Assembly: GCA_017307855.1 (NCBI GenBank)
Contig: JAFKGD010000010.1
Span: forward strand, 124,001-188,000
DNA from: Burkholderiales bacterium
GTDB lineage: Bacteria > Pseudomonadota > Gammaproteobacteria > Burkholderiales > Burkholderiaceae_C
Length of the DNA stretch: 64,000 bases
Reading direction: 5' to 3'
Shown: in pieces, positions 48,932 through 64,000 of the stretch
Numbering within the stretch: the stretch's first letter is position 1
Layout of the letters: each line of letters begins with the position of its first letter
Notes under the pieces: generated by a model
Database searches by the model: none
Told to the model about the DNA's origin: nothing
What the model saw: the letters and a program-made list of their open reading frames with translations, nothing else
Position numbers and translations under genes: made by a program

Positions 48932-49282
48932 TCAGAACGGGATGCGGCCCCGCCAGATGTCGCGGTACATCGCCCAGTCGCCCATGAAGCTGTAGAGCGG
49001 GCGCTTGAACGAGGCCGGCCGGTTTTTCTCGAAGCCGAAATGGCCGATCCATGCGAACCCGTAGCCGCACAGCAGACCGGCCAGCAGGAAGCCCGGGCGG
49101 CCCGTGAGCACGAGCGCGGCCAGGCAGGCCAGCGCCAGCGTCGAGCCCACGAAGTGCAGGCGCCGGCAGGTGCGGTTGGAATGCTCCGTCAGGTAGAACG
49201 GATAGAACTCGGCGAAGCTTGCGAAGCTGCGCGGGTCGGGCGCGGCGTGCGCACCGGTGGGGGATGGCGTCGTGGTGTCCAT
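48932..49282 (-). CDS. Mpo1-like (DUF962) membrane protein
   Basis: 116-residue protein with two or three helices and the family motifs FYPFYLTEHSNRTCRRLHFVGS, cited by EHSNRTCRRLHFVGS, and GFAWIGHFGFEKNRPASFKRPL, cited by WIGHFGFEKNRPA. The conserved His residues match yeast Mpo1, an Fe(II) dioxygenase that shortens 2-hydroxy fatty acids. Bacterial function is not established. It is divergent from the thioredoxin-like gene. Confidence 0.88.
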   Translation of the reverse strand: MDTTTPSPTGAHAAPDPRSFASFAEFYPFYLTEHSNRTCRRLHFVGSTLALACLAALVLTGRPGFLLAGLLCGYGFAWIGHFGFEKNRPASFKRPLYSFMGDWAMYRDIWRGRIPF

Positions 49283-49398
49283 GGCATGTCTCCTGGAGCG
49301 GGAAGGCCTCTGGCGGGCCGGTCCGTCCATTCTTGCGGCCGAGTCACAATAGTCAAGCCAGTGCGCGACAGCGCGCCGCCATTCCTGACCTGCCGCCG

Positions 49399-49749
49399 AT
49401 GACCCCGTTGCCGCCCACCTCCCGCCTGATCGCCTGCCTCTGCGCCGAATGGTGCGGTACCTGTCGCGACTGGCGCGCGCTGTTCGACGAGGTGACGGCG
49501 CGACACCCCGGCGCGCGCGTGCGCTGGATCGACATCGAGGACGAGGCCGACCTGGTGGGCGACATCGACGTCGAAACCTTTCCCACGGTGCTGGTGGTGG
49601 ATGGCGGAGAGCGCGTGCGTTTCTTCGGCCCGCTGCTGCCGCATGCGCAGACGCTGGCCCGCCTGCTCGATTCGCTCGAGCCCGGCGGCGCGGATCAGGC
49701 CGTGGATGGTGAAGTGAAGGCGCTGGCGCGGCGGCTCGCGGCGGGCTGA
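49399..49749 (+). CDS. Thioredoxin-like protein
   Basis: 116-residue cytoplasmic thioredoxin-fold protein with a WCGTC active site (CGTC, near residues 20-23; classical thioredoxin is CGPC) and a cis-proline in ETFPTVLVVDGG. There is no signal peptide. The ATG at 49399 is chosen from the fold boundary. It is convergent with cofD, whose stop is 9 bp away. The role is likely disulfide reduction of an unknown partner. Confidence 0.85.
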   Translation: MTPLPPTSRLIACLCAEWCGTCRDWRALFDEVTARHPGARVRWIDIEDEADLVGDIDVETFPTVLVVDGGERVRFFGPLLPHAQTLARLLDSLEPGGADQAVDGEVKALARRLAAG

Positions 49750-49758
49750 TCCGGCCCC

Positions 49759-50700
49759 TCAGCCGCAGCGCGCGATCAGTTCGAGCGAAGCGCGGGCCAC
49801 GCGCTCGCGCGAGTCGGCATCGGTCATCAGCGTGTCGGTCACCCCCACCCGGATGCCCAGCGCCTCGATGGCGGGCGCCTGCGCGGCATCGCGTCGGTCG
49901 AGCACCAGGCCGTCGATCAGGCCCGCGTAGCGCCGCGCCACGCCCAGCGCCGACACCTCCAGGCCCAGCTCGGCCATCATCTTGGCAGCCGGGCCCTTGA
50001 CGGCCTGGCCCGCGATGATCGGGCTCACGGCCACGCAGGGCGCGCGGCGTTGGCCGAGCCGATCGCGCAGCCCGGGCACGGCCAGCATCGGGCCGATGCT
50101 CACGAACGGATTGGAGGGGCAGATCACCCAGCCTTGCACCGCGCCGGCATCGGCCTGCCGCGCCAGCGGCGCAGCCAGCCGGGCCGTGCCCGCGCCCTCG
50201 AAGCGGATGCCGCGGCACAAGGGCTCGCAGCGCCGTCGCACGAAGTAGTCCTGAAACGCAAGCACGCCCTCGGGCGTGTCGACATGCGTGCGCACGGCGT
50301 CGTCGCTCATGGGCACGATGTCGAACGCCAGGCCCAGCGCATGCGCCATGCGCGCCGTCACCTCGGACAACGTCGCCCCCTGGCGCAGCCAGTCGGTGCG
50401 CAGCACGTGGGTGGCCAGGTCGCGGTCGCCCAGCATGAACCAGCTCTCGAAGCCCAGCTGCGGCAGGCTGTGGTGGAAGTTCCAGCTCTCGTTCTCGCGG
50501 CCCCATCCGCGCACGCTGTCGTTGAGCCCGGCCGCGGCGTAGAGCACGCTGTCGATGTCGGGGCACACGCGCAGGCCGAGGTAGTCGAAGTCGTCGCCCG
50601 TATTGACCACGGCCATGAGTTCGCCCGGCCCGCACACGCCGGCCAGGCCGCTGACGAGTTTGGCGCCGCCCACGCCGCCGGACAGTGCAACGAGGGTCAT
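49759..50700 (-). CDS. cofD: 2-phospho-L-lactate transferase (F420 biosynthesis)
   Basis: Joins the activated phospho-acid (lactyl, glyceryl or enolpyruvyl) to the deazaflavin FO to give F420-0 or its analogue. The 313 residues include SGGVGGAKL (7-15), VVNTGDDFDYLGLRVCPDID with the CofD signature NTGDDF, GDRDLATHV and a C-terminal ADSRERVARASLELI region. It is the last gene in the operon cofC-fbiC-npdG-cofE-cofD and overlaps cofE by ATGA. FbiA is the actinobacterial name. Confidence 0.95.
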   Translation of the reverse strand: MTLVALSGGVGGAKLVSGLAGVCGPGELMAVVNTGDDFDYLGLRVCPDIDSVLYAAAGLNDSVRGWGRENESWNFHHSLPQLGFESWFMLGDRDLATHVLRTDWLRQGATLSEVTARMAHALGLAFDIVPMSDDAVRTHVDTPEGVLAFQDYFVRRRCEPLCRGIRFEGAGTARLAAPLARQADAGAVQGWVICPSNPFVSIGPMLAVPGLRDRLGQRRAPCVAVSPIIAGQAVKGPAAKMMAELGLEVSALGVARRYAGLIDGLVLDRRDAAQAPAIEALGIRVGVTDTLMTDADSRERVARASLELIARCG

Positions 50701-51455
50701 CGGAACAGGTCTTCCTTGAGCGGGCGTTGCAGGTCGCGGGCAGACGCGCCCGCGTTCGCCTGCCACGCAAAGCCACGGATCACCACGGCCGGCGTGCCCT
50801 CGCTGCCCTGGCCCATGACGGCCGACGCGGCGGCGGCCAGCTCGTCGGCCGTGCCCACTTCGGAGGACACCAGCCGGTAGCCGTACAGGTCGGTGTCGCC
50901 GCGCAGGTCGTTCAGGCATACCAGGCCGCTGGCGCCGATGGCCTGGCCCACAGTGCCGCGCCGCCAGGCCCGGCCCAGGCTGTCATTGATGATCACCGGC
51001 ACGTCGAAGCCGCAGCGCGCAGCCAGCGCCGCCGACAGCCGTGCGGCCGACGCATCGGGATCGCGCGGCCATGTCACCACCCACTCGCCGGGGCCCAGTT
51101 GCGGCACGTTGGAGCGGTCGACACCGGCGTTGGCCAGCACCACGCCGCTGCGGTGGCGCGTGATGATCACGTGCGGCGTGCAGCGCACCACCTCGTCCGA
51201 TTCGGACAGCACCACCTGGACCAGGCGCGGGTCGCGCTTCATCAGGGCGCCCAGTTCGCGCGCGCGGTCGGAAGGCTCCACCGCCTCGACGTTGACGAAG
51301 CAGTTCTCGGTCTTGGAGACCACCTTCTGCGCGAACACCAGCAGGTCGCCGGCCGCGAGGCCGCCGGCCTGCGTAGCGGCGGCCTCGAAGGCGAGCTGGC
51401 AGAGGTCGTCGCCCGGCCCCAGGCGGGGCGGCAGGCGCAGGGCGATCAATTGCAT
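50697..51455 (-). CDS. cofE: Coenzyme F420-0:L-glutamate ligase
   Basis: Adds gamma-linked glutamates to F420-0 using GTP. The 252 residues show the family pieces ALRLPPRLGPGDDL, DLLVFAQKVVSKTEN, GVVLANAGVDRSNV, and VIINDSLGRAWRRGTVGQAIGASGL, cited by DSLGRAWRRGTVGQ. It has the archaeal-type stand-alone length: the C-terminal flavin-binding nitroreductase-like domain fused in mycobacterial FbiB is absent. The ATG overlaps into cofD (ATGA). A 66-bp gap with a hairpin separates it from npdG. Confidence 0.94.
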   Translation of the reverse strand: MQLIALRLPPRLGPGDDLCQLAFEAAATQAGGLAAGDLLVFAQKVVSKTENCFVNVEAVEPSDRARELGALMKRDPRLVQVVLSESDEVVRCTPHVIITRHRSGVVLANAGVDRSNVPQLGPGEWVVTWPRDPDASAARLSAALAARCGFDVPVIINDSLGRAWRRGTVGQAIGASGLVCLNDLRGDTDLYGYRLVSSEVGTADELAAAASAVMGQGSEGTPAVVIRGFAWQANAGASARDLQRPLKEDLFR

Positions 51456-51500
51456 CGTCGGGTCGGCAGGATCATGCGCGGTGTGTCGGTAACCCCCGAT

Positions 51501-51523
51501 GATGCCTGCGCCGCGCGGGCATC
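51501..51523 (-). other. Hairpin between npdG and cofE
   Basis: GATGCC (51501-51506) and GGCATC (51518-51523) form a stem around a GC-rich loop at the end of npdG. There is no T-run. It could modulate expression of cofE and cofD relative to the upstream genes. Confidence 0.4.
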
Positions 51524-52202
51524 ACGACGCCTGCGGCGGCAGGCCCGTGATGCGGATGCCGGAGTCGGGCACCTTGTAGTTGCGGTTGAGCCAGATCAGC
51601 ACCGAGGTGAGCGCCTCGGCCACCACGGAGTTGGCCAGCGCACCGGCTTCCACCGCGCTCATGCCGATGCCGCGGATGAGACCGGCCACGGCGCGGCGCG
51701 CGTCAGCATCGTCGGCGCAGACCAGCACGTCGCAGTCCACCGCGTGGTCCAGATCCAGCAGCGCATGGGCCGATACGTTCTGGAACGCCGACACGACGCG
51801 CACGTCCGCGCCCAGCTGTTCCTGCAATTGCTTCACGCACGACTGGCCGCCAGGCAACTGCGCCACGCTGACCTTGGGTGGCACCAGCGGCACCGTCACG
51901 TCGATGAGGATCTTGCCGGCCAGCGCGGCCTTCAGCGCCAGCGCCGTGGCCTGCTGTGCACTGAACGGCACGGCCAGGATCACGATGTCGCCCGCCGCCG
52001 CGGCCTCGGCCAGGCTGGCGCCGCGCAGGTTCGTGGTCTGGGTGAGCGTGTTCAGTTCGGCGGCCTTGTCGGCCGCGCGTTGCGCGTCGCGCGAGCCGAT
52101 GACGACCGCGTGGCCGCCCAGGGCCAGGCGCGCCGCGATGCCGGCACCTTCGTGGCCGGTGCCGCCGAGCACGGCAATGGTCGTGGATGTGGGAAGCGTC
52201 AT
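51522..52202 (-). CDS. npdG: NADPH-dependent F420 reductase
   Basis: Reduces F420 with NADPH to supply F420H2 to LLM-type enzymes. The 226-residue Rossmann protein begins with TIAVLGGTGHEGAGIAARLA, cited by VLGGTGHEG, and has IGSRDAQRA with the NADP phosphate-binding Ser-Arg, ILAVPFSAQ and DVTVPLVPP. Length and motifs match the F420H2:NADP oxidoreductase (Fno) family. It lies between fbiC (overlap ATGA) and cofE, so its partner is fixed by context. The symbol fno is used in methanogens. Confidence 0.9.
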   Translation of the reverse strand: MTLPTSTTIAVLGGTGHEGAGIAARLALGGHAVVIGSRDAQRAADKAAELNTLTQTTNLRGASLAEAAAAGDIVILAVPFSAQQATALALKAALAGKILIDVTVPLVPPKVSVAQLPGGQSCVKQLQEQLGADVRVVSAFQNVSAHALLDLDHAVDCDVLVCADDADARRAVAGLIRGIGMSAVEAGALANSVVAEALTSVLIWLNRNYKVPDSGIRITGLPPQAS

Positions 52203-54571
52203 GCCTGGAGGATCTCCTGTTTGTGCGGGTATTGCATGGGAAGGTCGGCCGGCACGATCGGGCGCGCCTGGGTGACGGGTTGGTAGAGGGTGGTGCGCTG
52301 CTGCAGGCGGCGGCCGGTGGCCTCGGCGATGGCCTGCAACTGGCCCAGCGTCATTTCCTGGCCCCAGTCGGCGCCGGCGGCGCGCGAGATGCTCTCGTTC
52401 ATCAGGATGCCGCCGAAGTCGTTCACGCCCGCGGCCATCGTCTCCCGCATCCCGGCCGGGCCGAGCTTGACCCACGAGGTCTGGATGTTGGGAATCAGCG
52501 GATTGAGCACCAGGCGCGACACCGCGTACATCAGGATGTTTTCGCGCCACGTGGGCCCGCCGCGCGAGACGTGGCGCTTGAACATCGGCGTGTTCATGGG
52601 CACGAAGGGCAGGGGCACGAATTCGGTGAAGCCGCCCGTGCGTTGCTGCACGTCGCGCACGGCCAGGATGTGGCGCGCCCAGTGGATGGCGCGGTCCACG
52701 TGGCCGAACATGATGGTGGCCGTGGTGGCGATGCCCTCGCGATGCGCGTCCTCGATCACCGACAGCCATTCGGACGTGTTCACCTTGTCGGGGCAGATGA
52801 TGGCGCGCACCTCGTCGTCGAGGATCTCGGCGGCCGTGCCCGGCAGCGAGCCCAGGCCGTGCGACTTCAGCTCGCGCAGCAGTTCGCGGTGGCTGATGCC
52901 GAGTGTTTGCGCGCCGTGCCAGATCTCCAGCGGCGAGAACGCATGCACGTGCATGTCGGGCACGGCGGCCTTCACGGCCCGCAGCAGGCCGATGTAGGTG
53001 TTGCCGTCGAAGCTGGGGTGGATGCCGCCCTGCATGCAGACCTCGGTGGCACCGCGCTGCCAGGCCTCCGCCGCCATGCCGGCGACTTCGGCGTAGGCCA
53101 GGTTGTAGGGGCCGTCCACCTTGCGCTCGCCGCCCGTGCGCTTGGAGAACGCGCAGAACGAGCACTTGTAGCCGCACACGTTGGTGTAGTTGATGTTGCG
53201 GTTGACCACGTAGCGGGCCACGTCGCCGCTCACGCGCTGGCGCACCTCGTCGGCGCTGCGCACGATGTGGCGGTAGTCGGCGCCACGGGCTTCGAAGAGC
53301 CGGGCCACTTCGTCTTCATGAAGGCGCTGGCCGGCCACGGCGCGCGCCACCAGGTCGCGCACGTCGGCCGAGGGGCGTTCGGCCGCGTGCACCGGGGCCG
53401 AACCCAGGGGCGGCTGCGCGCAGGCCACGTCGCCCGGGCGCCATTCGCCCTCGCGCGCCAGGCCCGACACGTCGCTGCGCAGCATCACGCGGCCGAGCAG
53501 CGCGGGTGCGATCCAGGTGGCGGCGTCGCGCACATAAGCCGGGTAGACGGGCAGGCGCTGGGCCAGGGTGAAGTCGGCTTCTTCCAGCTCGCGCGCCAGC
53601 ACGGGCAGTTGCGGCCAGGCGGCCTCGGGGTTGACGTAGTCGATGGTGACGGGCGAGATGCCGCCCAGGTCGCTCACGCCCGCATCCAGCAGGTCGAGCA
53701 CTTCGCTGCCGGCGGTGAGATTGGGCGGCGCCTGCACGGCGATGCCGGCGGGCAGCATCAGCCGCGCGGCGGCGATGGTCCACAGGTGCTCGGCGTGCGA
53801 GGGCTCGGCCCAGTCGCGCATGGGCGTGTTGTCCTTGGCGCGGAAGTTCTGCACGATCACTTCCTGGATGTGGCCGAACTCGTCGTGCAGCGCGCGGATG
53901 GCGGCCAGTGCCTGCAGGCGCTCTTCACGCGTTTCGCCGATGCCGATCAGGATGCCGGTGGTGGTGGGGATGCGAAGGCGCCCCGCGTCGCGCAGCATGG
54001 CCAGTCGCAGCACGGGCTGCTTGTCGGGCGAGCGGTAGTGCGCACCGCCCTTGAGCATCAGGCGGTCCGAGGTGCTTTCCAGCATCAGGCCCATCGACAC
54101 GCTGTGCTCGCGCAGCGCGGCCAGTTCGTCGGCGGTCAGGATGCCGGCGTTGACGTGCGGCAGCAGCGTGCTGTTGCGATTGACCTCGCGGCAGGCGGCC
54201 AGCAGGTAGTCGAAGGTGGACGCATGGCCGTGCGCCTGCAGCCACTGGCGCGCGACTTCGAAGCGCAGCTCGGGCTTGTCGCCCAGCGTGAACAGCAGTT
54301 CGGTGCAACCCTGTTTGTGGCCGTCGCGCGCCAGCTTCACCACTGCGTCCATGTCCATGTAGGGCGGCGTGCTGGCGCGCGGCGGGCGCGAGAAGGTGCA
54401 GTAGCCGCAGAAATCTCGGCACAGCATGGTCAGCGGCGCGAACATCTTGCGCGAGTACGTGATGACCGGACCGTGCAACGCGCGGGCGCGCTCACCGGCG
54501 GCGGCCAGAAGTGTGGCCGCGGGCGTGGCCAGCACCTGGCTGGCGTTCCATGCGGGATGGGCGAGGGACAT
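52199..54571 (-). CDS. fbiC: FO synthase, fused CofG/CofH radical-SAM protein
   Basis: Makes the deazaflavin chromophore FO from tyrosine and a ribityl-diaminouracil. The 790-residue protein contains two radical-SAM domains. The CofG half has C51-x3-C55-x2-C58 in CRDFCGYCTF; the CofH half has C-x3-C-x2-C in CGYKCSFCAF near residue 466. Other pieces are TTTGILIGIGETREER and TATIMFGHVDRAIHW. AGGAG precedes the ATG. Fused FbiC is the arrangement of actinobacteria and some other bacteria, while methanogens have separate genes. It is second in the operon. Confidence 0.97.
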   Translation of the reverse strand: MSLAHPAWNASQVLATPAATLLAAAGERARALHGPVITYSRKMFAPLTMLCRDFCGYCTFSRPPRASTPPYMDMDAVVKLARDGHKQGCTELLFTLGDKPELRFEVARQWLQAHGHASTFDYLLAACREVNRNSTLLPHVNAGILTADELAALREHSVSMGLMLESTSDRLMLKGGAHYRSPDKQPVLRLAMLRDAGRLRIPTTTGILIGIGETREERLQALAAIRALHDEFGHIQEVIVQNFRAKDNTPMRDWAEPSHAEHLWTIAAARLMLPAGIAVQAPPNLTAGSEVLDLLDAGVSDLGGISPVTIDYVNPEAAWPQLPVLARELEEADFTLAQRLPVYPAYVRDAATWIAPALLGRVMLRSDVSGLAREGEWRPGDVACAQPPLGSAPVHAAERPSADVRDLVARAVAGQRLHEDEVARLFEARGADYRHIVRSADEVRQRVSGDVARYVVNRNINYTNVCGYKCSFCAFSKRTGGERKVDGPYNLAYAEVAGMAAEAWQRGATEVCMQGGIHPSFDGNTYIGLLRAVKAAVPDMHVHAFSPLEIWHGAQTLGISHRELLRELKSHGLGSLPGTAAEILDDEVRAIICPDKVNTSEWLSVIEDAHREGIATTATIMFGHVDRAIHWARHILAVRDVQQRTGGFTEFVPLPFVPMNTPMFKRHVSRGGPTWRENILMYAVSRLVLNPLIPNIQTSWVKLGPAGMRETMAAGVNDFGGILMNESISRAAGADWGQEMTLGQLQAIAEATGRRLQQRTTLYQPVTQARPIVPADLPMQYPHKQEILQA

Positions 54572-54605
54572 GAAGGGGCTCCTGGCGGGAGTTCGCTTCG
54601 CGCCG

Positions 54606-55259
54606 TCAGGCGTGCAGCGTCGGTTCTGGCCGTGATGCCGCCGTGGCGGCGGCGACGTCGCCGGTGGGACGCCAGCGCAGGTAGTCGGCCGGTTCGTCGA
54701 TGTCGAAGGCGAACACGGAATCGCGCTGCACCACGGGCTGCAATCCTTCGCGCCAGGCCATCAGCCGGTGGCGAACGAGGCTGCCGGGTCCGAAGGCGTA
54801 GTCATCCAGCGCCACCGGCGACTGGAACAGCAGGTTCGTGCCCTGGCCGTGGTGGTCGGGCACCAGCACGCACACCGGGCCGCGGGGGGCCGTCTCGACC
54901 AGGCGCCGCAGGTCGTCGCCGCTGCCGCAGGGCAAGTCCACCGGCATGACGAGGACGGCATCGGCGCCGCACTCGCGCGCATGCAGCGCGCCCCATTGCA
55001 CCGCCGCGTTCAGGCCGTGAGGAGGCGGCTCGGACAAGGCCTGGCAGCCGTGCTCGCGGGCGATGCGCAGCACCTCGCGCGAGCGGCTCACCACCACCGT
55101 GCGGGCAGCGCCCGGGTAGGTGCTGGCGCGCTCCAGCGTGCGCAGCAGCAGCTGGCGATTGAGCGCCACGCGTTCGGACGGCGAGAGCATGCCGGCCAGG
55201 CGCGTCTTGCCCTCCTCGAAAGGCTTGACGGGAATGACCGCATGGAGCTGGCGGGGCAT
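54606..55259 (-). CDS. cofC: 2-phospho-L-lactate guanylyltransferase
   Basis: Activates the phospho-acid (2-phospholactate, 3-phosphoglycerate or PEP) with GTP for CofD. The 217-residue nucleotidyltransferase has VIPVKPFEEGKTRLAGML (GTP-binding, about 7-24), SEPPPHGLNAAVQWG, VMPVDLPCGSGDDLRRLV (metal Asp) and GTNLLF. Start ATG 55259 is chosen because the conserved VIPVK strand then begins at residue 7 and it lies after the predicted promoter; its ribosome site is weak. It is first gene of the operon. Which acid it uses cannot be told from sequence. Confidence 0.93.
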   Translation of the reverse strand: MPRQLHAVIPVKPFEEGKTRLAGMLSPSERVALNRQLLLRTLERASTYPGAARTVVVSRSREVLRIAREHGCQALSEPPPHGLNAAVQWGALHARECGADAVLVMPVDLPCGSGDDLRRLVETAPRGPVCVLVPDHHGQGTNLLFQSPVALDDYAFGPGSLVRHRLMAWREGLQPVVQRDSVFAFDIDEPADYLRWRPTGDVAAATAASRPEPTLHA

Positions 55260-55316
55260 GGCGGGTGGCAGGTGGCGGGAGCTGGAAGGGGCAGCGGAAC
55301 AGGCTCGTGTGGAACC

Positions 55317-55345
55317 AGTATCGGCAAGCCGCAGGGTCGCCTCAA
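55317..55345 (-). promoter_or_regulatory. Candidate promoter of the F420 operon
   Basis: On the minus strand TTGAGG (55345-55340) and GATACT (55322-55317) are 17 bp apart. The predicted start of transcription is near 55310, giving a leader of about 50 nt before cofC. Confidence 0.55.
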
Positions 55346-55365
55346 CAGCCGGCCCTATTTGGGCG

Positions 55366-55380
55366 ATAAGCACTGCTTAT
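55366..55380. promoter_or_regulatory. LysR-type operator (T-N11-A box) upstream of the F420 operon
   Basis: ATAAGCA-C-TGCTTAT is a perfect 15-bp inverted repeat with the LysR-family form T-N11-A. Its centre is about 63 bp before the predicted cofC transcription start, the usual activation site for LysR regulators. A lysR gene ends 40 bp upstream. Confidence 0.7.
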
Positions 55381-55420
55381 GCGTGTCCGGCCCCGCGGCG
55401 GCCGACGACCGGTGCGTCAG

Positions 55421-56365
55421 TCAGGCCACGCGCAGGCGTGGCGAGGCGTCGCCCTGGCCGCGCAGGGTGCGCAGCTTTTCCTGGTCGTCGGCCAGCTGCA
55501 TGCGCATGCAGCGCAGCAGGGTCTTGCTGGCTTCGGACATCAGCACGCCCGGGCGGGACACCATCACGCACGAGAACAGCACGTTTAGCGAGAACGGACG
55601 GATCACCAGGCCACGCTCGACGAAATCGATGGCGACGATGGGATTGACAAGCCCGATACCCACGCCGGCCAGCGCCAGCTCGCAGATGGTGCTGGCGTAC
55701 GGGGTTTCGACCACGGGAGCGAGGCGGTGGTCGGTCGCCTGCAGCATCTTCTCCAGCCGCAGCCGCGAGGCATCCTCGGGGTTGAGCCCCACGTGCGGGT
55801 GCGACACCAGGTCGGCCGGCTCGATCACGCTCTTGCGCGCCAGCGCATGGCCGGGCGCCATCACGATCACGCCGTTCATGTGCGCGAAGGCGTGGTGCTC
55901 CAGGCCCGAGGCCGGCGTCTCGTCGGCCATCAGTCCGAAGTCGTACTGGCCGGCCAGCACGTTCTGGTAGACGTCGCGCGAACTCATCACCTGCAGCGAG
56001 ACCTTCATGTTGTCCAGTTGCGGCTGCATGCGCGCGATGGCGCGCGGCACGAAGCTGGTGCCATAGGCCGGATACGCGGCGATGCGCAGGCGGCCCATCA
56101 CGCCCGAGCGCAGGCTGCGGATGCGGTGCTGGATCAGTTCGAGGCCCACGAAGCACTGGTTCACCTCGGCCAGCAGCGCCTCGGCTTCCTGCGTGGGCAC
56201 CAGCCGTCCGCGCACGCGCTCGAACAGGCGGAACTCGGCGCTGGTCTCGAGCTTGCGGATGATCTGGCTCACTGCCGGTTGCGAGATGCCGAGCAGGGTG
56301 GCCGCCTTGCTGGTGCTGCCCGCCCCCATCACGGCCCGGAAGACTTCGATTTCGCGCAGCAGCAT
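55421..56365 (-). CDS. LysR family transcriptional regulator
   Basis: 314-residue regulator with an N-terminal winged HTH (KAATLLGISQPAVSQIIRKLE, cited by ISQPAVSQIIRKLE, about 28-41) and a periplasmic-binding-like effector domain. It sits directly upstream of cofC on the same strand, not divergently, with a 161-bp gap containing a T-N11-A box and a promoter. It is the likely regulator of the F420 operon, but could also control distant genes. Effector is unknown. Confidence 0.9.
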   Translation of the reverse strand: MLLREIEVFRAVMGAGSTSKAATLLGISQPAVSQIIRKLETSAEFRLFERVRGRLVPTQEAEALLAEVNQCFVGLELIQHRIRSLRSGVMGRLRIAAYPAYGTSFVPRAIARMQPQLDNMKVSLQVMSSRDVYQNVLAGQYDFGLMADETPASGLEHHAFAHMNGVIVMAPGHALARKSVIEPADLVSHPHVGLNPEDASRLRLEKMLQATDHRLAPVVETPYASTICELALAGVGIGLVNPIVAIDFVERGLVIRPFSLNVLFSCVMVSRPGVLMSEASKTLLRCMRMQLADDQEKLRTLRGQGDASPRLRVA

Positions 56366-56583
56366 GGTGATATCGCCTGTGAGTTCGCCACCCTCGGCAG
56401 AACGCCTCGGGCTTCGAAGTCCAATCTAGCAACTTGCATGCCGCGGGCGCGAGCGGGCGAGTCCGGTTGCCGTCGTCGTCAAACGGAGTTAGGCACTTGT
56501 CTGGATGTGTACTTTTGGATTGATGCCTGCGCCCGCGAGGGTGGCAGGGACCGCCGGGTTCCGGCCGCGAAGCGCGTCGACGT

Positions 56584-57591
56584 TCAGTGCGGGGGCGTCG
56601 CGGTCCAGCGTGCCGCGCTCGCGTCATACACCGTGCGCCGGATGCGGTTGAGGTTGCCGAGTGGGCGGAACGCGTCCGGTGCATTCCATGGATTGAATGG
56701 CGTAGCGTCGACGGCCTGCGCTGTCGCCATTGCCGCAGGTGACCGCAGATCGCGCGTGGACAGCGTGAGCGTGGCAATCTTCACGAACGGCACCGTGCTT
56801 TCGTCCCAACCCGTGCAGCCGTCTTCGATCGGCGTCATCACGTCATCGACGTATCGCTGGGCCGACAGCTGATAGAGCACGTCGCCCTGCAGCAGGGTCT
56901 GCGCGAAATCGGACGACAGATCCGGCGGTGCGTGCATTCCAGAGACCGGCGGCACGGCCGGATGCAGTTTGAGTCGCACCGGCCCTGCATCGCCCCAGAG
57001 CAGGGCCCCCCGGCTCCAGAAGCTTTCGTCGGCAAGTCGCCGCGTTGCGCCCGTTGCCGACTTGAGGTTGCGCAGGATGCGCAGCATCTCCGCCGGCCCG
57101 AAGGTGAACAGCAGCCGCGGCAGCAGCAGCGACCTGGCCCCCGACATGATCGATGCGAACTGGACGGACTGCACAGCGTCCCGCGCATGCGATACCGGGT
57201 AATTCGTCAGCAGGAGTTCATGCACGTTGCCGTCCGGCAGATGAAGCCGCAAGGCAGCACCCCGCATGTCAGGCTTCCTGCCGCCGTGGGGAATGCCACT
57301 GGCATTGGACAGGCGGACGGTGCAACGCAGACGCGCACCGGGCTGGAAATGATGCTGTCGCAGATCGGGCGGAACGTCGTCTGCCACCTCGAAGATCGCG
57401 TCATCGACGCCGGCCAGGATTTCCGCGTGCAGCGTGCGCAGTTTGCGGCCGTCGGAAACCTGGGCCTGGTTGCGCAGTTGCACGTCGCGCATGCGCATGA
57501 CCAGTTCTTCGAAGAGCCGCGATTCCGCAGCTTCGGATCCATTCATCCATGTTTCGCGCCACTGCCGGGCCGGGGTGGTGGTGTCGCTCAT
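56584..57591 (-). CDS. Catalase-like protein (y4iL-type, short)
   Basis: 335-residue protein related to the heme-catalase fold. RTLHAEILAGVDDAIFEV aligns with the distal-His strand of catalases (His near residue 53), VRLSNASG and MRGAALRLHLPDG follow the core, and LLLTNYPVSHARD matches the distal Asn. The protein ends with FRPLGNLNRIRRTVYDA, before the segment that carries the proximal heme-ligand Tyr in true catalases. Activity is therefore uncertain. No neighbour suggests its role. Confidence 0.75.
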   Translation of the reverse strand: MSDTTTPARQWRETWMNGSEAAESRLFEELVMRMRDVQLRNQAQVSDGRKLRTLHAEILAGVDDAIFEVADDVPPDLRQHHFQPGARLRCTVRLSNASGIPHGGRKPDMRGAALRLHLPDGNVHELLLTNYPVSHARDAVQSVQFASIMSGARSLLLPRLLFTFGPAEMLRILRNLKSATGATRRLADESFWSRGALLWGDAGPVRLKLHPAVPPVSGMHAPPDLSSDFAQTLLQGDVLYQLSAQRYVDDVMTPIEDGCTGWDESTVPFVKIATLTLSTRDLRSPAAMATAQAVDATPFNPWNAPDAFRPLGNLNRIRRTVYDASAARWTATPPH

Positions 57592-57655
57592 CGTCGCTCC
57601 AGGTTCGTTGACTCGTGCCGCGTGTCTGGCACCGGCAGCCCTGCAAGTACCCGGC

Positions 57656-58063
57656 CTAGGGTTGGCCGTCGAAGGAGGGTGTGCCGGGAGGGAGTTTCAC
57701 CCATGCCTGCCGGCGGCGCGTCCAGATCTCGCGCTGCGGGGCGCCGAGCTCGTGGCGCTGCGCCAGCGTGCCGGTGCGCAGCGAGTACGACGGCGGATCC
57801 TGCACCGCGCAGGCGTACAACTGCGTGCCGCAGACCTCGCAGAACGCGGTGAGACGCTGCCTCCCGCTGGCCGCTGTCTTGACGTAGGTGCGCGGCGTGC
57901 CTCTGACGAGCCGGAAGCCCGCCGCAGGCGCCGGGATGTTGGCCCGGAACGCCGAGCCGGATTGCACCTGGCAATCGATGCAATGGCAGACGGTGACGGT
58001 GCCGGTCTCGACCTCGGCTTCGTACGCCACCGCGCCGCAGTGGCAAGCGCCTTCGACTTTCAT
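57656..58063 (-). CDS. GFA (CENP-V) family zinc protein
   Basis: 135-residue member of the glutathione-dependent formaldehyde-activating-like family. Zinc-binding cysteines are in GACHCGAV, VCHCIDCQ and FCEVCGTQLY. In this family the activity is often unproven; some are S-hydroxymethyl-glutathione synthases and others dechlorinases. The ATG at 58063 with GGAG upstream is chosen. It lies 181 bp beyond the LLM gene on the same strand, so it may be the end of the catabolic cluster. Confidence 0.88.
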   Translation of the reverse strand: MKVEGACHCGAVAYEAEVETGTVTVCHCIDCQVQSGSAFRANIPAPAAGFRLVRGTPRTYVKTAASGRQRLTAFCEVCGTQLYACAVQDPPSYSLRTGTLAQRHELGAPQREIWTRRRQAWVKLPPGTPSFDGQP

Positions 58064-58244
58064 GGAGGATCTCCTGGTATTCGCGACCGCGCGTCGTCGG
58101 CGGCCGGATGGTGATGCTCCCACGATATCGCCGTTCGCGTCAGCCGTGATTGGCTGCCGAACCCATCGCGTGCATGCGCATGGAGGCACCACGCCGCTAC
58201 TGGACGGCGAGGTGGCGGAGCGGGCCGGCCCCGCCGCCGCCCCG

Positions 58245-59252
58245 TCAGCGCACCACCGCCAGCGCCTGGCCGATCCCCGCCCGGTCGTCGATGCCGCCGA
58301 TGGTGACTTCGTCCAGCCCCAGCGCCATGTATTCGCCGTAGCGCGCGCGCACCTGCTGCGGCGTGCCGGCGGCGGCGTGCGCGCGGATCACGTCGTCGGT
58401 GACCAGGCGTTCGAGCGTGGGCCAGTCCTCGTCGCGGAAGGCGTTCCACACGGCCGCCTGGTCCAGCCGCGTGCCCGAGAGTTCCACGTTCTTCGCATGG
58501 TGCGGACCCCGCAGGATGAAGCCCATGGTGCGGCGGATCCCGCCCAGCGCTTCGGGCTCGGTGGCGGCGATGCGCGTGTACACGATGGCCGTGCGGCTGC
58601 AGCGGCCCGGGGCGCTGCGATGGGCCTGGCCGCGATCGACCTGCTCCAGGCACCAGCGGATGAAGGGCGTGCCGGTGGCGGCCGAGATCAGCACGCCGTC
58701 GGCTTCGGCGCCGGCCAGCTCCAGCATCTGCGGGCCCGATGCGGCCAGCACGATGGGCACGCGGTCGGTGGGGTTGGGCAGGCGGCGGCCCTGCACCGTG
58801 AACACCTCGCCGGCGTGCGCCATGGTCTCGCCGGCCAGCAGCGCGCGGCAGACACGGATGGCCTCGCGCAGCGTGGCCAGCGGACGCGGCGCCTCGATGC
58901 CTGCGGCGGCCAGGTCGCCCGGCGCGCCCACGCCCAGGCACAGCACCACGCGGCCCGGAAACAGTTCGTCGAGCGCAGCCGCCGACATGGCGATGTACAC
59001 GGGGTGCACCGTGAACGGGCTCATCGCCATCAGGGCGACCTTGATGCGCGAGGTGGCGGCCAGCGCGGCGTGCGCGGCGGTCACCGGGTCGCGCAGGAAC
59101 AGGTGGCAGGCGACCCAGAGCGTGGAGGCGCCGCCGGCCTCGGCCGCCCGGGCCTGCTCGACGAATTCGGCCAGCGTGGCGCGGCCATCGGAAGCCACGC
59201 CGATCCGGCCGGCGGGGGAGAGAGCGTGAGCGTCAGGCGACGTCGAAACCAT
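58245..59252 (-). CDS. LLM class oxidoreductase, Mer-like (possibly F420-dependent)
   Basis: 335-residue TIM-barrel protein of the luciferase-like monooxygenase class, related to methylene-tetrahydromethanopterin reductase. Visible are FVEQARAAEAGGASTLWVACH, VALMAMSPFTVHPVYIAMSAAALDELFPGRVVLCLG, cited by PGRVVLCLGVG, and VPIVLAASGPQMLELAG. Such enzymes use F420 or FMN. Its 20-bp overlap with the PLP-enzyme gene and the AAGGA site inside that gene indicate one transcript. Confidence 0.85.
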   Translation of the reverse strand: MVSTSPDAHALSPAGRIGVASDGRATLAEFVEQARAAEAGGASTLWVACHLFLRDPVTAAHAALAATSRIKVALMAMSPFTVHPVYIAMSAAALDELFPGRVVLCLGVGAPGDLAAAGIEAPRPLATLREAIRVCRALLAGETMAHAGEVFTVQGRRLPNPTDRVPIVLAASGPQMLELAGAEADGVLISAATGTPFIRWCLEQVDRGQAHRSAPGRCSRTAIVYTRIAATEPEALGGIRRTMGFILRGPHHAKNVELSGTRLDQAAVWNAFRDEDWPTLERLVTDDVIRAHAAAGTPQQVRARYGEYMALGLDEVTIGGIDDRAGIGQALAVVR

Positions 59253-60483
59253 AGTGTTCCTTGAGCGTGGCGAGCGCCGCGTCCAGCCGGGGCGCGGTAC
59301 GCGGCACCGGTGGCAGATGGCGCTCGGCCACAGGGTTGTCCTTGAGGCCGGAGGCGGTGAGCAGCGACACCACGCGATCATGCGGTGCGATGGTGCCGTC
59401 GGCGCGCAGCCGCTCGATGGCCGGCAACGTGGCCACTGAGGCGGGCTCGGCATACACGCCTTCGGCGGGGCCCAGGCGCGCGTGCCAGCGCAGGATGTCC
59501 TCGTCGGGCACGTGCACGGACACGCCGCGCGAGGCGCGCAGGGCCATCAGCCCCTGCAGCGTGCCCTGGGCGGCGGCGATCGACGCCGCCGACGAGGGTG
59601 CCGCCAGCGGGCGCACGGGCGGCACGTCGCCACCCTCGGCCATGGCGCCGGTGATCGAGCCCGACACCTCGGCGGCCAGCAGGCGCGGCATGCGCCGTGT
59701 CCAGCCCAGCGCGCGCAGGTCGTCGAAGCCCTTCCAGATACCGTAGAGCGAGTCGCCGTAGCAGGCCGGGACGGCGCACCACTCGGGCACGTCCCAGTCC
59801 ATCGCCTCGGCGATCTCGTAGGCGATGGTCTTGTAGCCCTCGATGCCCAGCGGACTGCTGCCGATCACGGGCCCGAAGTACGCCGTGGTGGGAAACCAGC
59901 CATGGCGCGCCACGGCCTCGACCAGCACGGTCCAGCGGTCGGCGCTGGTGGGCACCTTGAGCAGCAGCGCGCCATAGGCCTGCATCTGCGTGACCATGGC
60001 GCCGCCCGCGTTCTCGGTGGTCAGCACCACGCAGGGCAGCCCCGCGCGCGCGGCGTACGCGGCGGTGGCCGCACCCGCATTGCCCGACGAGCTGCAGGCG
60101 ATCACGCGCGCGCCCATGCGGCGCGCCATCGTCACGGCCGCGCTGGCCAGCCGGTCCTTGAACGACCAGGTGGGGTTGCGGCTCTCGTCCTTGAACCACA
60201 GCGGGCCCAGGCCCAGGCGAGGCATGTCCAGCAGCGGCGTGAGCCCTTCGCCCAGGCTCACGGCCGCGTCGGCGGGCGCGTGCAGCAGGTCGGCGTAGCG
60301 CCACATCGAGTGCGGCCCGCGCGGCAGGCCCTCGGGCCGCAGCGCGGGCCAGGGCGCGTCGTAGCCCACCGTGAGGTTGGCCGCGACACCCTGCGCGGCA
60401 CAGGCGTCGCAGCCGCGCACGTGGTCAGCCAGCGCGAACCGCTTGCCGCAGCGGATGCAGGTCAGGTGGGTCGACTCGCGCAT
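59233..60483 (-). CDS. Threonine-synthase-like PLP-dependent enzyme
   Basis: 416-residue fold-type II PLP enzyme. A Cys-rich N-terminus (CIRCGKRF and CDAC, residues 9-32) precedes the catalytic-lysine motif NPTWSFKDRLA and the cofactor loop SSGNAG; GSSPLGIEGYKTI follows. Classical ThrC shares this fold, but gene context is catabolic: LLM enzymes, hydantoinase and a binding protein surround it. It may instead eliminate or cleave an amino-acid-like intermediate. Start ATG is at 60483. Confidence 0.82.
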   Translation of the reverse strand: MRESTHLTCIRCGKRFALADHVRGCDACAAQGVAANLTVGYDAPWPALRPEGLPRGPHSMWRYADLLHAPADAAVSLGEGLTPLLDMPRLGLGPLWFKDESRNPTWSFKDRLASAAVTMARRMGARVIACSSSGNAGAATAAYAARAGLPCVVLTTENAGGAMVTQMQAYGALLLKVPTSADRWTVLVEAVARHGWFPTTAYFGPVIGSSPLGIEGYKTIAYEIAEAMDWDVPEWCAVPACYGDSLYGIWKGFDDLRALGWTRRMPRLLAAEVSGSITGAMAEGGDVPPVRPLAAPSSAASIAAAQGTLQGLMALRASRGVSVHVPDEDILRWHARLGPAEGVYAEPASVATLPAIERLRADGTIAPHDRVVSLLTASGLKDNPVAERHLPPVPRTAPRLDAALATLKEHYGFDVA

Positions 60484-60500: not shown

Positions 60501-61640
60501 TTACTTCAGCTCGTAGGTGTCGAGCACCGACACCTTGCGGTCCTTGACCTGGTTGATCACCACCAGGCGGCCGGCCTGGTTGTTGGCGTCGAAGGACAGC
60601 TTGCCGCCGTGCAGGCCGGTGATGCTGGCCTTGGCCATGGCATCGCGCACCTTGACCGGGTCGTCGCTCTGCGCATCGCGGATCGCGGCGGCGATCATGC
60701 GCACGCTGTCGTAGCCCGCCCAGGCCTGCAGGTTGGCGGGAATCTTGTGGCGCGCGAGGATGGTGGCGGCGAACTTCTTGTTGGCCGGGTTGTCGATCTC
60801 GGGCGCATACGTCCACGCCGAGATCGATCCGTTCAGGCCGCCGGCCTGGATCAGTTCCACCGTCTTGCCCGAGAGGTCAGCGCGGCCGGTGAAGGGAATG
60901 TTCACGCCCATCTGCATCGCGGTGCGGAAGAAGTTGAGCGAATCCGCGCCCAGCATGAACATGGCGATGGCGTCCGGGCGGCGCTGCGTCACGCGTGTGA
61001 GCAGCGGCGTGAAGTCCGGCGTCATCTGCGGCGCGAAATCGGTGGAGACGATGGTGAGCCCGGCCTTCTGTGCCAGCGGCGCGAAGGCGGCGGCGCCGCC
61101 ACGGCCGAAGTCAGAATCCTCGCCCACCACGGCGATGGTCTTGAACACCTTCTTCTGGCCGAGGTACTCGGTCAGGCCCTGGGCCATGCGCAGGTCGTCC
61201 GGGCTCAGGCGGAACATGTAGGGGTTGCCGCCCGCGCCCGAGAGTTCGCCGATCTTCGGGCTCGACGAGACGGCCGTGACCATGGGGATCCTGGCCTCGG
61301 CAATGATCGGCATCATCGCCAGCGTGGCGCTGGAGCAGTGCGCGCCCACGATGGCGCTGACTTTGTCCTGCGCTAGCTTGCGCGCGGTGTTGGCGCCTTC
61401 GGTGGGGTTGCAGCGGTTGTCGGCGGTGATGACTTCGATCTTCTTGCCCAGCAGGCCGCCGGCCGCGTTGATCTCTTCGACCGCGAGGTCGACGCCCCAC
61501 TTCTCCCATTCCGACGCGGCGGCGGCCGGGCCGGTGAAGCCGCTGGAGAAGCCGATGCGGATGGTGTTCTGCGCCTGGGCACCGAACGAGGCGAGGGCCA
61601 TGGCGACAGCCACGGCGGATGCGGAACAGAAATACTTCAT
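60501..61640 (-). CDS. ABC transporter substrate-binding protein, branched-chain amino acid type
   Basis: Periplasmic type I binding protein, 379 residues, with a signal peptide (YFCSASAVAVAMALASFGAQA, residues 3-23) and a mature start NTIRIGFSSGFTGPAAAASE. Core pieces are VGAHCSSATLAM and VVGEDSDFGRGGA. AGGAG precedes the ATG. No permease or ATPase is seen in the window; they may lie beyond the right edge. It lies between LLM and PLP-enzyme genes, so its ligand is probably the substrate of this cluster. Confidence 0.92.
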   Translation of the reverse strand: MKYFCSASAVAVAMALASFGAQAQNTIRIGFSSGFTGPAAAASEWEKWGVDLAVEEINAAGGLLGKKIEVITADNRCNPTEGANTARKLAQDKVSAIVGAHCSSATLAMMPIIAEARIPMVTAVSSSPKIGELSGAGGNPYMFRLSPDDLRMAQGLTEYLGQKKVFKTIAVVGEDSDFGRGGAAAFAPLAQKAGLTIVSTDFAPQMTPDFTPLLTRVTQRRPDAIAMFMLGADSLNFFRTAMQMGVNIPFTGRADLSGKTVELIQAGGLNGSISAWTYAPEIDNPANKKFAATILARHKIPANLQAWAGYDSVRMIAAAIRDAQSDDPVKVRDAMAKASITGLHGGKLSFDANNQAGRLVVINQVKDRKVSVLDTYELK

Positions 61641-62763: not shown

Positions 62764-64000
62764 TCAGGCCGGGGTGGCGGCGGCGCGCCGGCGGGCGGTG
62801 GCGTCGGTATCGGGCGTGCCGTCGGCGGCCAGCACGACGCCATAGTCGCGCTCGGCCGCCTCGCGCGAGACGAGGCCGAAGCGCACGTCCTCGGCCACGC
62901 GCGCCGGGTCGCGCTTCATCGGGTCGCCCAGGCCGCCGCCGCCGGGCATTTCCATGAGGAAGGTCTCGCCCGGCTGGATGGTCTGCTGGCCCTTGCCGCG
63001 CAGGGTGCGGCCGGCACTGGTGGTGAGCACGCCGCGCGCGCCGTCGTGGCCGCCTTCGCGCCCGCGCGGCGGGAAGGTCACGCGGTCGTAGTTGGCGCTG
63101 ATGAGGAAGGGCGCGTCGTCCAGGTGCACGGCCTCCATCACCTGGCCCAGGCCGCCGCGGAATTCGCCCGCGCCGCCCGAATCCACGCGGTACTCCTTGC
63201 GCCGCACCAGGATGGGCGAGAGCGCCTCGGTGATCTCGATCGGGCAGTTCTTCACGCCGCTGGGAAAGGCCGTGGCCGACATGCCGTCCAGCCCCGGCCG
63301 CGCGCCCGTGCCGCCCGAGTGGAAGCTCATCACGTTGAAGGCGCGCGACTTCGCGATCAGCTCCAGGTCGGCCTCGATGCGGCTGTCGCCGCCCATGGCG
63401 AACAGGTTCCACAGGCACGAGGTGCCTTCGGCCGGCACGCCGTTCTTCACCGATTGCGCGAGGCAGCCGAACATCAGGTCGGGCAGCAACTGGCCGGTGA
63501 TGTGGCGCGTGGCCACGGGCGAGGGGTGCTGCGCGTTGAGGATGCAGCCTTCGGGCGCCCGGATGCGGATGATCGAGAGCGACCCCGCGTTGTTGGGCAC
63601 CTTGGGCGAGACGATGCACTTGATGCCGAAGCTGGCGTACGCCTCGGTGTAGCAGAAGGGCACGTTGATGCCGAAGGCCGACACGCCCGAGGTGCCGTCG
63701 AAGTCCACGTCGATGCCGGTGGCGCTCACCGTCATCGTGGCCACCAGCGTCACGGGCTTGTCGTAGCCGTCCACCGTCATCTCGTGGCGGAAGGTGCCGG
63801 CGGGCAGTTGCGCCACCGCTTCCAGGCTGGCCTCGCGCGAGCGGTCGAGGATGTGCGTGGCCAGCGTGTCGAGCGAGTCGAGCCCGAACTCGTCCATCAT
63901 CGACAGCAGCCGGCGCGCGCCGATCTTGTTGCAGGCGGCCAGCGAGAACAGGTCGCCGATCACCTGCGTGGATTCGCGCACGTTGCCGCGGATCACTTCC
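62764..64000 (-). CDS. Hydantoinase B/oxoprolinase family protein (5' part outside window)
   Basis: Partial, 412 codons visible on the minus strand, open to the right edge (a GTG at 63996 lies inside the family domain and is not a true start). Family pieces are IRGNVRESTQVIGDLFSLAACN, GTSGVSAFGINVPFCYTEAYA, and FHSGGTGARPGLDG, with EMPGGGGLGDPMKRDP near the C-terminus. Such proteins work with HyuA to cleave hydantoins, 5-oxoproline or related lactams or to carboxylate ketones, using ATP. It is the first visible gene of the catabolic cluster; HyuA would be expected beyond the edge. Confidence 0.9.
   Translation of the reverse strand, partial: EVIRGNVRESTQVIGDLFSLAACNKIGARRLLSMMDEFGLDSLDTLATHILDRSREASLEAVAQLPAGTFRHEMTVDGYDKPVTLVATMTVSATGIDVDFDGTSGVSAFGINVPFCYTEAYASFGIKCIVSPKVPNNAGSLSIIRIRAPEGCILNAQHPSPVATRHITGQLLPDLMFGCLAQSVKNGVPAEGTSCLWNLFAMGGDSRIEADLELIAKSRAFNVMSFHSGGTGARPGLDGMSATAFPSGVKNCPIEITEALSPILVRRKEYRVDSGGAGEFRGGLGQVMEAVHLDDAPFLISANYDRVTFPPRGREGGHDGARGVLTTSAGRTLRGKGQQTIQPGETFLMEMPGGGGLGDPMKRDPARVAEDVRFGLVSREAAERDYGVVLAADGTPDTDATARRRAAATPA

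What the first reader, a model, noticed from the sequence alone, without database searches (positions are those of the whole stretch)
49759..55259. Coenzyme F420 biosynthesis operon in a betaproteobacterial genome
Five minus-strand genes in one operon (cofC, fbiC, npdG, cofE, cofD) carry all family motifs for making F420 and reducing it with NADPH. F420 is best known from actinobacteria and archaea and is sparsely reported in proteobacteria. The overlaps between fbiC, npdG and between cofE, cofD argue for a functioning unit. This is the clearest unusual system in the window.
Basis: partly seen in the sequence, partly recalled or inferred. Interest (0 to 1): 0.9.

Follow-up and report, generated by a model that had tools for sequence, protein, structure and literature searches.

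The report
F420 cofactor genes inside catabolic regulon
A bacterium related to Variovorax carries a complete gene set for the rare redox cofactor F420, and these genes appear to be switched on together with neighbouring genes for taking up and breaking down an unknown nitrogen-containing compound, which suggests what the cofactor is for in such bacteria.

Summary
Window 49759-55259 (minus strand) encodes CofC, FbiC, NpdG/Fno, CofE and CofD, each supported by curated models, with the two claimed 4-nt overlaps. F420 in betaproteobacteria is already in print, so the operon alone is a new member of a known kind. CofC has the residues of 2-phospholactate/PEP enzymes, not of the 3PG-F420 enzyme.

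What is new lies outside the given coordinates. The operon is one end of a 23-kb same-strand island with three luciferase-like (LLM) oxidoreductases, a Liv-type ABC transporter, HyuA/HyuB and two PLP enzymes. A LysR-type dyad, ATAAGCAGTGCTTAT, precedes cofC. In the 4.99-Mb genome three sites match it within two mismatches; all three lie in this island, upstream of cofC, livH and a cystathionine-lyase-like gene, each followed at equal spacing by GAYACT. I infer one LysR regulon that makes F420 together with its client enzymes for catabolism of an unidentified substrate.

LLM genes also cluster beside fbiC elsewhere: 38 observed, 2.84 expected, in 26 genomes. Regulator binding, F420 production, F420 use and the substrate are inferred, not shown.

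The parts
49759..50700 (-). cofD, 2-phospho-L-lactate transferase
   Evidence: TIGR01819 300.5 bits, cut-off 257.45; nearest solved chain is the archaeal CofD 3c3d, 235 bits
50697..51455 (-). cofE, F420-0:glutamate ligase, no fused nitroreductase domain; ATGA overlap with cofD
   Evidence: TIGR01916 243.3 bits, cut-off 180.65; Pfam F420_ligase only; overlap
51522..52202 (-). npdG (Fno), NADPH-dependent F420 reductase; ATGA overlap with fbiC
   Evidence: TIGR01915 178.9 bits, cut-off 149.8; overlap
52199..54571 (-). fbiC, FO synthase (CofG and CofH halves fused)
   Evidence: TIGR03550 and TIGR03551 above cut-off; two CX3CX2C motifs
54606..55259 (-). cofC, guanylyltransferase with 2-phospholactate/PEP-type residues (L, V, Q, G)
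   Evidence: TIGR03552 128.2 bits, cut-off 105; residue alignment
55317..55345 (-). predicted promoter of the cof operon: TTGAGG (55345-55340), 17 nt, GATACT (55322-55317)
   Evidence: same spacing at three island promoters; too weak for the plain sigma-70 scan
55366..55380 (-). predicted LysR operator ATAAGCAGTGCTTAT
   Evidence: perfect 7-bp arms; one of three genome sites within 2 mismatches, all in this island
55421..56365 (-). lysR-type regulator gene, predicted to act on the three operators
   Evidence: Pfam LysR_substrate and HTH_1; OccR among the closest solved relatives
56584..57591 (-). catalase-related gene, role unknown; membership of the regulon not shown
   Evidence: Pfam Catalase 20.4 bits, below its cut-off of 25
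57656..58072 (-). GFA-domain gene; membership of the regulon not shown
   Evidence: Pfam GFA 99.6 bits
58245..59252 (-). LLM1, luciferase-like oxidoreductase, Mer-like (start estimated)
   Evidence: Pfam Bac_luciferase 190.4 bits; best NCBIfam PRK02271 152.6, below cut-off 276
59233..60483 (-). threonine-synthase-like PLP enzyme (start estimated)
   Evidence: Pfam PALP 201.3 bits; PRK08197 240.3, below cut-off 303
60501..61640 (-). Liv-type periplasmic binding protein
   Evidence: Pfam Peripla_BP_6 247.7 bits
61711..62718 (-). LLM2, F420-type LLM oxidoreductase
   Evidence: TIGR03619 191 bits, cut-off 166.9
62764..64000 (-). HyuB (gene runs past the window end to C17:188500); beyond it HyuA, LivF, LivG, LivM, LivH, LLM3 and the lyase-like gene, to C17:196549
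   Evidence: Pfam Hydantoinase_B 479.6 bits; the other genes

Best explanation
This is a complete, probably working F420 biosynthesis and reduction operon that belongs to a dedicated catabolic regulon. Shown by sequence: FbiC, CofC, CofD, CofE and NpdG are present; a LysR gene, three LLM oxidoreductases, a Liv-type transporter, HyuA/HyuB and two PLP enzymes lie on the same strand in the same 23 kb; and the only three genome sites within two mismatches of one operator motif lie upstream of cofC, livH and a cystathionine-lyase-like gene. Inferred: the LysR protein binds these sites when it senses the substrate or an intermediate, and activates uptake, the degradative enzymes and F420 synthesis together. 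FbiC would make FO; CofC and CofD would attach a 2-phospholactate- or PEP-derived linker; CofE would add glutamates; NpdG would reduce F420 with NADPH; the LLM enzymes would use F420H2 (or F420) on a substrate that HyuA/HyuB opens as an ATP-dependent amide or lactam hydrolase and the PLP enzymes process further. The host would thus build the cofactor on demand for one nutrient. The substrate is not identified.
For: Family matches. Three of the genome's six PF00296 genes lie in the island. LLM2 and LLM3 pass the F420-type model TIGR03619. The dyad found before cofC, used alone, hits the genome at three places within 2 mismatches, all in this island and each in front of a gene. The three sites share a 25-position pattern (built from these sites), a 20-nt step and a 17-nt spacer to GAYACT. 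Dyad position about -63 fits LysR-type sites at -64 (OccR) and -66 (CynR) (PMC5002191 passages). LLM genes near fbiC in 26 genomes: 38 against 2.84 expected. G271, another genus of the family, has LLM3-like (71%), LLM1-like (47%) and lyase-like (62%) genes around its cof genes.
Against: No binding, expression or metabolite data. The reversed-pattern control also gives two sites in the genome, so the number of sites is not remarkable, only their placement. The third site has 2 mismatches and imperfect symmetry. The predicted promoter is too weak for the sigma-70 scan. The operator was not found near the cof genes of G271, G392 and G141, and G381 has only a 3-mismatch hit. LLM1 is below the cut-off of every model listed, and LLM enzymes may use FMN. 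HyuA/HyuB are far below the caprolactamase cut-offs. LLM3 is too rare for a profile test.
Confidence: 0.66

Rival explanations
1. An ordinary, horizontally acquired F420 operon that serves general redox needs and merely lies beside an unrelated amide-catabolism cluster.
For: F420 genes are patchy in the family (9 of 399) and the tree is compatible with several acquisitions. HyuA/HyuB lie near only 7 of 80 other FbiC loci.
Against: The shared operator-promoter architecture and the clustering of LLM genes beside fbiC in other genomes.
Confidence: 0.2
2. The island is a catabolic regulon, but its LLM enzymes use FMN; F420 is made for another enzyme or as FO for light or signalling.
For: The LLM superfamily includes FMN enzymes; FMN-type models also match LLM1-3, with lower scores. 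FO from Mycetohabitans controls sporulation of its fungal host (PMC11104420, abstract read).
Against: LLM2 and LLM3 pass the F420-type model; NpdG is in the operon; I found no other F420 client class, though that search had no positive control.
Confidence: 0.09
3. The product is 3PG-F420, as in Mycetohabitans.
For: By sequence the nearest solved CofC is the 3PG enzyme 7p97 (71.3 bits against 36.1 for 6bwg); the host is also a betaproteobacterium.
Against: The four discriminating residues are L, V, Q and G instead of M, C, H and S.
Confidence: 0.05

Closest known systems
F420 biosynthesis genes of proteobacteria (Mycetohabitans/Paraburkholderia rhizoxinica, Oligotropha, Paracoccus)
   Same: Same enzyme set, from FO synthase to glutamate ligase; NADPH-dependent Fno is the known F420 reductase of betaproteobacterial producers (PMC8498797)
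   Different: CofC residues are not of the 3PG type; probable client enzymes lie alongside, whereas P. rhizoxinica is reported to lack known F420-dependent enzymes; a shared operator is predicted
Actinobacterial F420-dependent picrate degradation (Fht LLM reductases with Fno)
   Same: LLM reductases plus NADPH:F420 oxidoreductase serving catabolism (PMC8498797 passages)
   Different: Here cofactor synthesis itself appears to be in the regulon, and HyuA/HyuB, a Liv transporter and PLP enzymes are present; that Fht clusters lack these is recalled, not tested
Alphaproteobacterial F420 islands (L012, L028, L039, L055, L057; L014 and L016 similar)
   Same: HyuA/HyuB, LLM and cof genes side by side
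   Different: They carry an acyl-CoA-synthetase-like gene and TRAP-type transporter genes; HyuB is about 28-29% identical to this one
LysR-type regulators OccR and CynR
   Same: Dyad centred near -65; the ATAA-n7-TTAT form is described for CynR (PMC5002191 passages); OccR is a close solved relative of the effector domain
   Different: The predicted regulon includes a cofactor biosynthesis operon; the ligand is unknown

Membership tests
F420 biosynthesis pathway | FO synthase with CofG and CofH domains and two radical-SAM CX3CX2C motifs | tested here: met
   TIGR03550 and TIGR03551 above cut-off; the fused model PRK09234 is 3.2 bits below; motifs
F420 biosynthesis pathway | CofC, CofD and CofE | tested here: met
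   Equivalog models above cut-off
F420 biosynthesis pathway | F420 made by the host | not testable with these tools
   Needs LC-MS or fluorescence
3PG-F420 subtype | CofC residues M91, C95, H145, S162 | tested here: not met
   L, V, Q, G
Dehydro-F420 route with FbiB-type reductase | Nitroreductase domain fused to CofE, or an FbiB C-terminal homologue in the genome | tested here: inconclusive
   Not fused; best genome match 25.9 bits against 249.55, but none of the 14 control genomes passed either
Fno/NpdG | NpdG equivalog match | tested here: met
   TIGR01915 178.9/149.8
F420-type LLM oxidoreductases (TIGR03619) | Model cut-off of 166.9 bits | tested here: met
   LLM2 191, LLM3 193.4; LLM1 is not a member (61 bits)
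F420-type LLM oxidoreductases (TIGR03619) | F420 binding and use | not testable with these tools
LysR-type regulon | T-N11-A dyad near -65 of each target promoter, confined to the target set | tested here: met
   Three sites, all in the island; transcription starts are predicted, not mapped
LysR-type regulon | Regulator binding and ligand response | not testable with these tools
   Needs gel shift and reporter assays
Caprolactamase CapA/CapB | NF050156 and NF050157 cut-offs of 1000 bits | tested here: not met
   HyuA 481.9 and HyuB 190.3 bits: relatives, not caprolactamase by this test

The most novel reading that the evidence does not exclude
A previously undescribed F420-dependent catabolic pathway in which a bacterium synthesises a whole redox cofactor only when one nutrient is present: a LysR regulator switches on uptake, F420 synthesis, F420 reduction, three F420-dependent LLM enzymes and ATP-dependent ring or amide opening as one substrate-inducible module. 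Comparable modules recur on proteobacterial chromosomes and on at least one conjugative plasmid.
Probability: 0.4. Interest if true: 0.75.

Novelty: new variant of a known kind. Interest (0 to 1): 0.58.

Why it matters
[quoted passage not shown] This locus gives a concrete, testable answer for one host: named client enzymes, a transporter, a regulator and its three predicted binding sites. The regulator offers a route to the substrate (find the inducer), and the LLM enzymes are candidate low-potential reductases. If F420 synthesis is substrate-induced, screens in standard media would miss such producers, which may bear on the trace amounts reported for some proteobacteria (inference).

Tried and rejected
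3PG-F420 as the product: rejected on CofC residues. FbiB-type nitroreductase: none fused to CofE and nothing above cut-off in the genome, but the control was uninformative. F420H2-dependent quinone-reductase family PF04075: no match in the genome, but it rang in no control genome, so absence is not shown. Operator conservation in relatives: not found around the cof genes of G271, G392 and G141; G381 has one 3-mismatch hit; the other four FbiC-bearing family genomes were not scanned. LLM3 as a phylogenetic-profile test: too few carriers, 2 of 399 at E 1e-40 (this genome and G271, both with FbiC) and 1 of 369 at E 1e-50 (this genome). LLM2 on plasmids: no match at E 1e-40. Sigma-70 and terminator scans of 49000-58000: no promoter-like site near cofC, and terminators no more than in shuffles. 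Actinobacterial origin: not tested properly; the tree holds two Rhodococcus plasmid FbiC (L111, L113), which sit beside this clade with support 91 under a midpoint root. Substrate: not named. An ectoine-like pathway was considered for G271 because of its M24-peptidase and aspartoacylase-type genes and dropped as speculation. Paper searches on F420 with hydantoinase, with betaproteobacteria, gene cluster, degradation and luciferase-like, with catabolism and Gram-negative, F420 biosynthesis with LysR and regulon and F420 with Comamonadaceae listed no paper whose title or abstract start describes such a regulon. Of the listed papers I opened only those cited; listings were cut at 20; most subscription journals are missing from that library.

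Full report
Observation. Each passes an equivalog model (E-values from 2.9e-37 to 6.3e-160). The fused-FbiC model PRK09234 is missed by 3.2 bits (1014.8 against 1018), while both half-models are far above their cut-offs. FbiC has two CX3CX2C motifs. The overlaps at 52202-52199 and 50700-50697 are both ATGA.

Host. The window is part of a 4.99-Mb, 17-contig genome. Part of its 16S gene is 95.7% identical over 750 bases to a Variovorax paradoxus record and 92.7% to Comamonas odontotermitis, so a betaproteobacterium of the Comamonadaceae is likely. No other genome of its genus is held. In the family sample FbiC matches in 9 of 399 genomes, 7 of 141 genera, this one included; two of the nine matches are partial. 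In a quick tree of 89 FbiC sequences this one groups with G271 and G381 of the same family (support 100); other family members (G141 with G094; G392; G339) fall elsewhere, which suggests several acquisitions, although G392 and G339 are long branches. The best relative among the named GTDB contigs is 57% identical; records very near this genome may be left out of that list.

Which F420. Published work makes Ser162 the diagnostic residue, with M91, C95 and H145, of the CofC that yields 3PG-F420 (PMC8764529, passages read). This CofC has G, L, V and Q there. Of the 57 CofC proteins in my alignment, this one included, 50 have G and 7 have D at the Ser162 place and none has S. By overall score the 3PG enzyme is nevertheless the nearest solved CofC (71.3 against 36.1 bits). 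The nearest solved CofD is the archaeal 2-phospholactate enzyme. CofE has no fused nitroreductase, and no FbiB-type nitroreductase passed its cut-off in the genome, though no control genome did either. I predict ordinary F420, or dehydro-F420 if PEP is used; which of the two is open.

The island. Upstream of cofC on the same strand come lysR, a catalase-related gene, a GFA-domain gene, LLM1, a threonine-synthase-like PLP enzyme, a Liv-type binding protein and LLM2. Beyond the window come HyuB, HyuA, LivF, LivG, LivM, LivH, LLM3 and a cystathionine-lyase-like PLP enzyme; divergent from these lie a carboxyltransferase-domain protein and a biotin carboxylase. LLM2 and LLM3 pass the cut-off of the F420-type model TIGR03619 (191 and 193.4 against 166.9). 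LLM1 is nearest a Mer model but below cut-off. The genome has six PF00296 matches and three lie here.

The shared operator. The 161-bp gap between lysR and cofC holds a perfect dyad, ATAAGCA-N-TGCTTAT. Used alone as a query with up to 2 mismatches, it hits the whole genome at three places: here (0 mismatches), C17:196542-196556 (1) and C17:194199-194213 (2). The reversed-pattern control gives two places, so the count is about what chance gives; the placement is not. By my own arithmetic, two further random hits would both fall in this 17-kb stretch with a probability near 1 in 80,000. The second site precedes the lyase-like gene (likely start C17:196459), the third precedes livH. The three sites share the 25-position pattern ATAAGCNGNGCTTNTCGNNCAANTA; the next genome match has 3 mismatches and the reversed control has none, but the pattern was built from these sites. 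They also share a 20-nt step, a hexamer (TTGAGG, TTGGGA, TAGCCG), a 17-nt spacer and GAYACT. GAYACT occurs 15 times in 244,000 strand positions of this stretch of contig, and three of the 15 are these. The promoter hexamers are too weak for the sigma-70 scan, which would suit an activated promoter but is not evidence for one. The dyad centre lies about 63 nt upstream of the start inferred from GATACT; LysR-type sites are reported at -64 for OccR and -66 for CynR, and the 15-bp ATAA-n7-TTAT repeat for CynR (PMC5002191, passages read). OccR is the second-best solved match of this LysR protein, over its effector domain. The simplest reading is three LysR-activated transcription units: lyase-LLM3; livHMGF-hyuAB-LLM2-binding protein-PLP-LLM1; and cofC-fbiC-npdG-cofE-cofD. 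The unit boundaries are inferred.

Is the clustering general? Around 80 GTDB FbiC loci (the 80 kept of 386; flanks cut by contig ends), LLM-like genes were found in 51 of 80, HyuA/HyuB in 7 of 80 (titles all alphaproteobacterial, similar arrangements), carboxyltransferase or PxpA-like genes in 4 of 80 and an FbiB-like nitroreductase in 2 of 80. For 26 genomes (this one, 4 of the 8 other FbiC-bearing family genomes, and 21 of the 80, chosen mainly for long flanks) I compared LLM genes near fbiC with genome totals: 38 near against 2.84 expected, at least one in 22 of 26. In the 19 genomes with at most 16 LLM genes it was 26 against 0.71, 17 of 19 loci. Four loci (L004, L005, L023, L075) had none. 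Leaving this genome out gives 35 near. G271, in another genus of the family, has LLM3-like (71%), LLM1-like (47%) and lyase-like (62%) genes around cof genes that run on into transhydrogenase pntA/pntB-type genes, a plausible NADPH supply for NpdG. On plasmids FbiC was found in 58 records, 18 typed as conjugative; one of them, from Agrobacterium rubi, carries cof genes with an LLM gene, PxpA, carboxyltransferase, biotin carboxylase and GABA transaminase genes.

What is and is not new. F420 production by betaproteobacteria is in print. The review I read in part (PMC8498797, passages and section 23) says no F420-dependent enzymes had been studied in non-actinobacterial bacteria by 2021 and that P. 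rhizoxinica lacks homologues of known ones. In the searches named in Tried and rejected I saw no description of an F420 operon under the same operator as a catabolic pathway. I file the operon as a member of the known F420 pathway and the regulon as a new variant.

Limits. Regulator binding, F420 production, cofactor use by the LLM enzymes and the substrate are inferred. The operator was not found near the cof genes of three of four scanned family relatives, and only with 3 mismatches in the fourth, so it may be specific to this lineage.

Noticed in passing
L096:4448-7301 (genome G271): Transhydrogenase pntA/pntB-type genes directly follow cofC in G271, as if to supply NADPH to NpdG; pntA passes one cut-off (412.9/383), pntB does not (513.6/689).
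   Followed up: partly
L012, L014, L016, L028, L039, L055, L057: Seven alphaproteobacterial loci place HyuA/HyuB, LLM and acyl-CoA-synthetase-like genes before npdG-cofE-cofD-cofC-fbiC, with TRAP-type transporter genes alongside: perhaps a related F420 catabolic module.
   Followed up: partly
L112 (Agrobacterium rubi plasmid pW2_73_1): A plasmid typed as conjugative carries cof genes with an LLM gene, PxpA, carboxyltransferase and biotin carboxylase genes and a GABA transaminase gene between fbiC and cofE.
   Followed up: no
L004:14076-14717; L023: Two betaproteobacterial F420 loci (Herminiimonas and Cupriavidus) have a stand-alone nitroreductase-like gene near the cof genes, a candidate dehydro-F420 reductase that the window's operon lacks.
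   Followed up: partly
L013, L041, L060, L062, L073, L076, L080: Seven CofC proteins, in loci titled gammaproteobacterial, Pseudomonadaceae or Pseudomonadales, have Asp at the place of the substrate-determining Ser162/Gly; the substrate is unknown.
   Followed up: no
L085:11040-14935: Divergent carboxyltransferase-domain and biotin carboxylase genes share the intergenic region with the lyase-like gene and its operator; they may belong to the same pathway.
   Followed up: no
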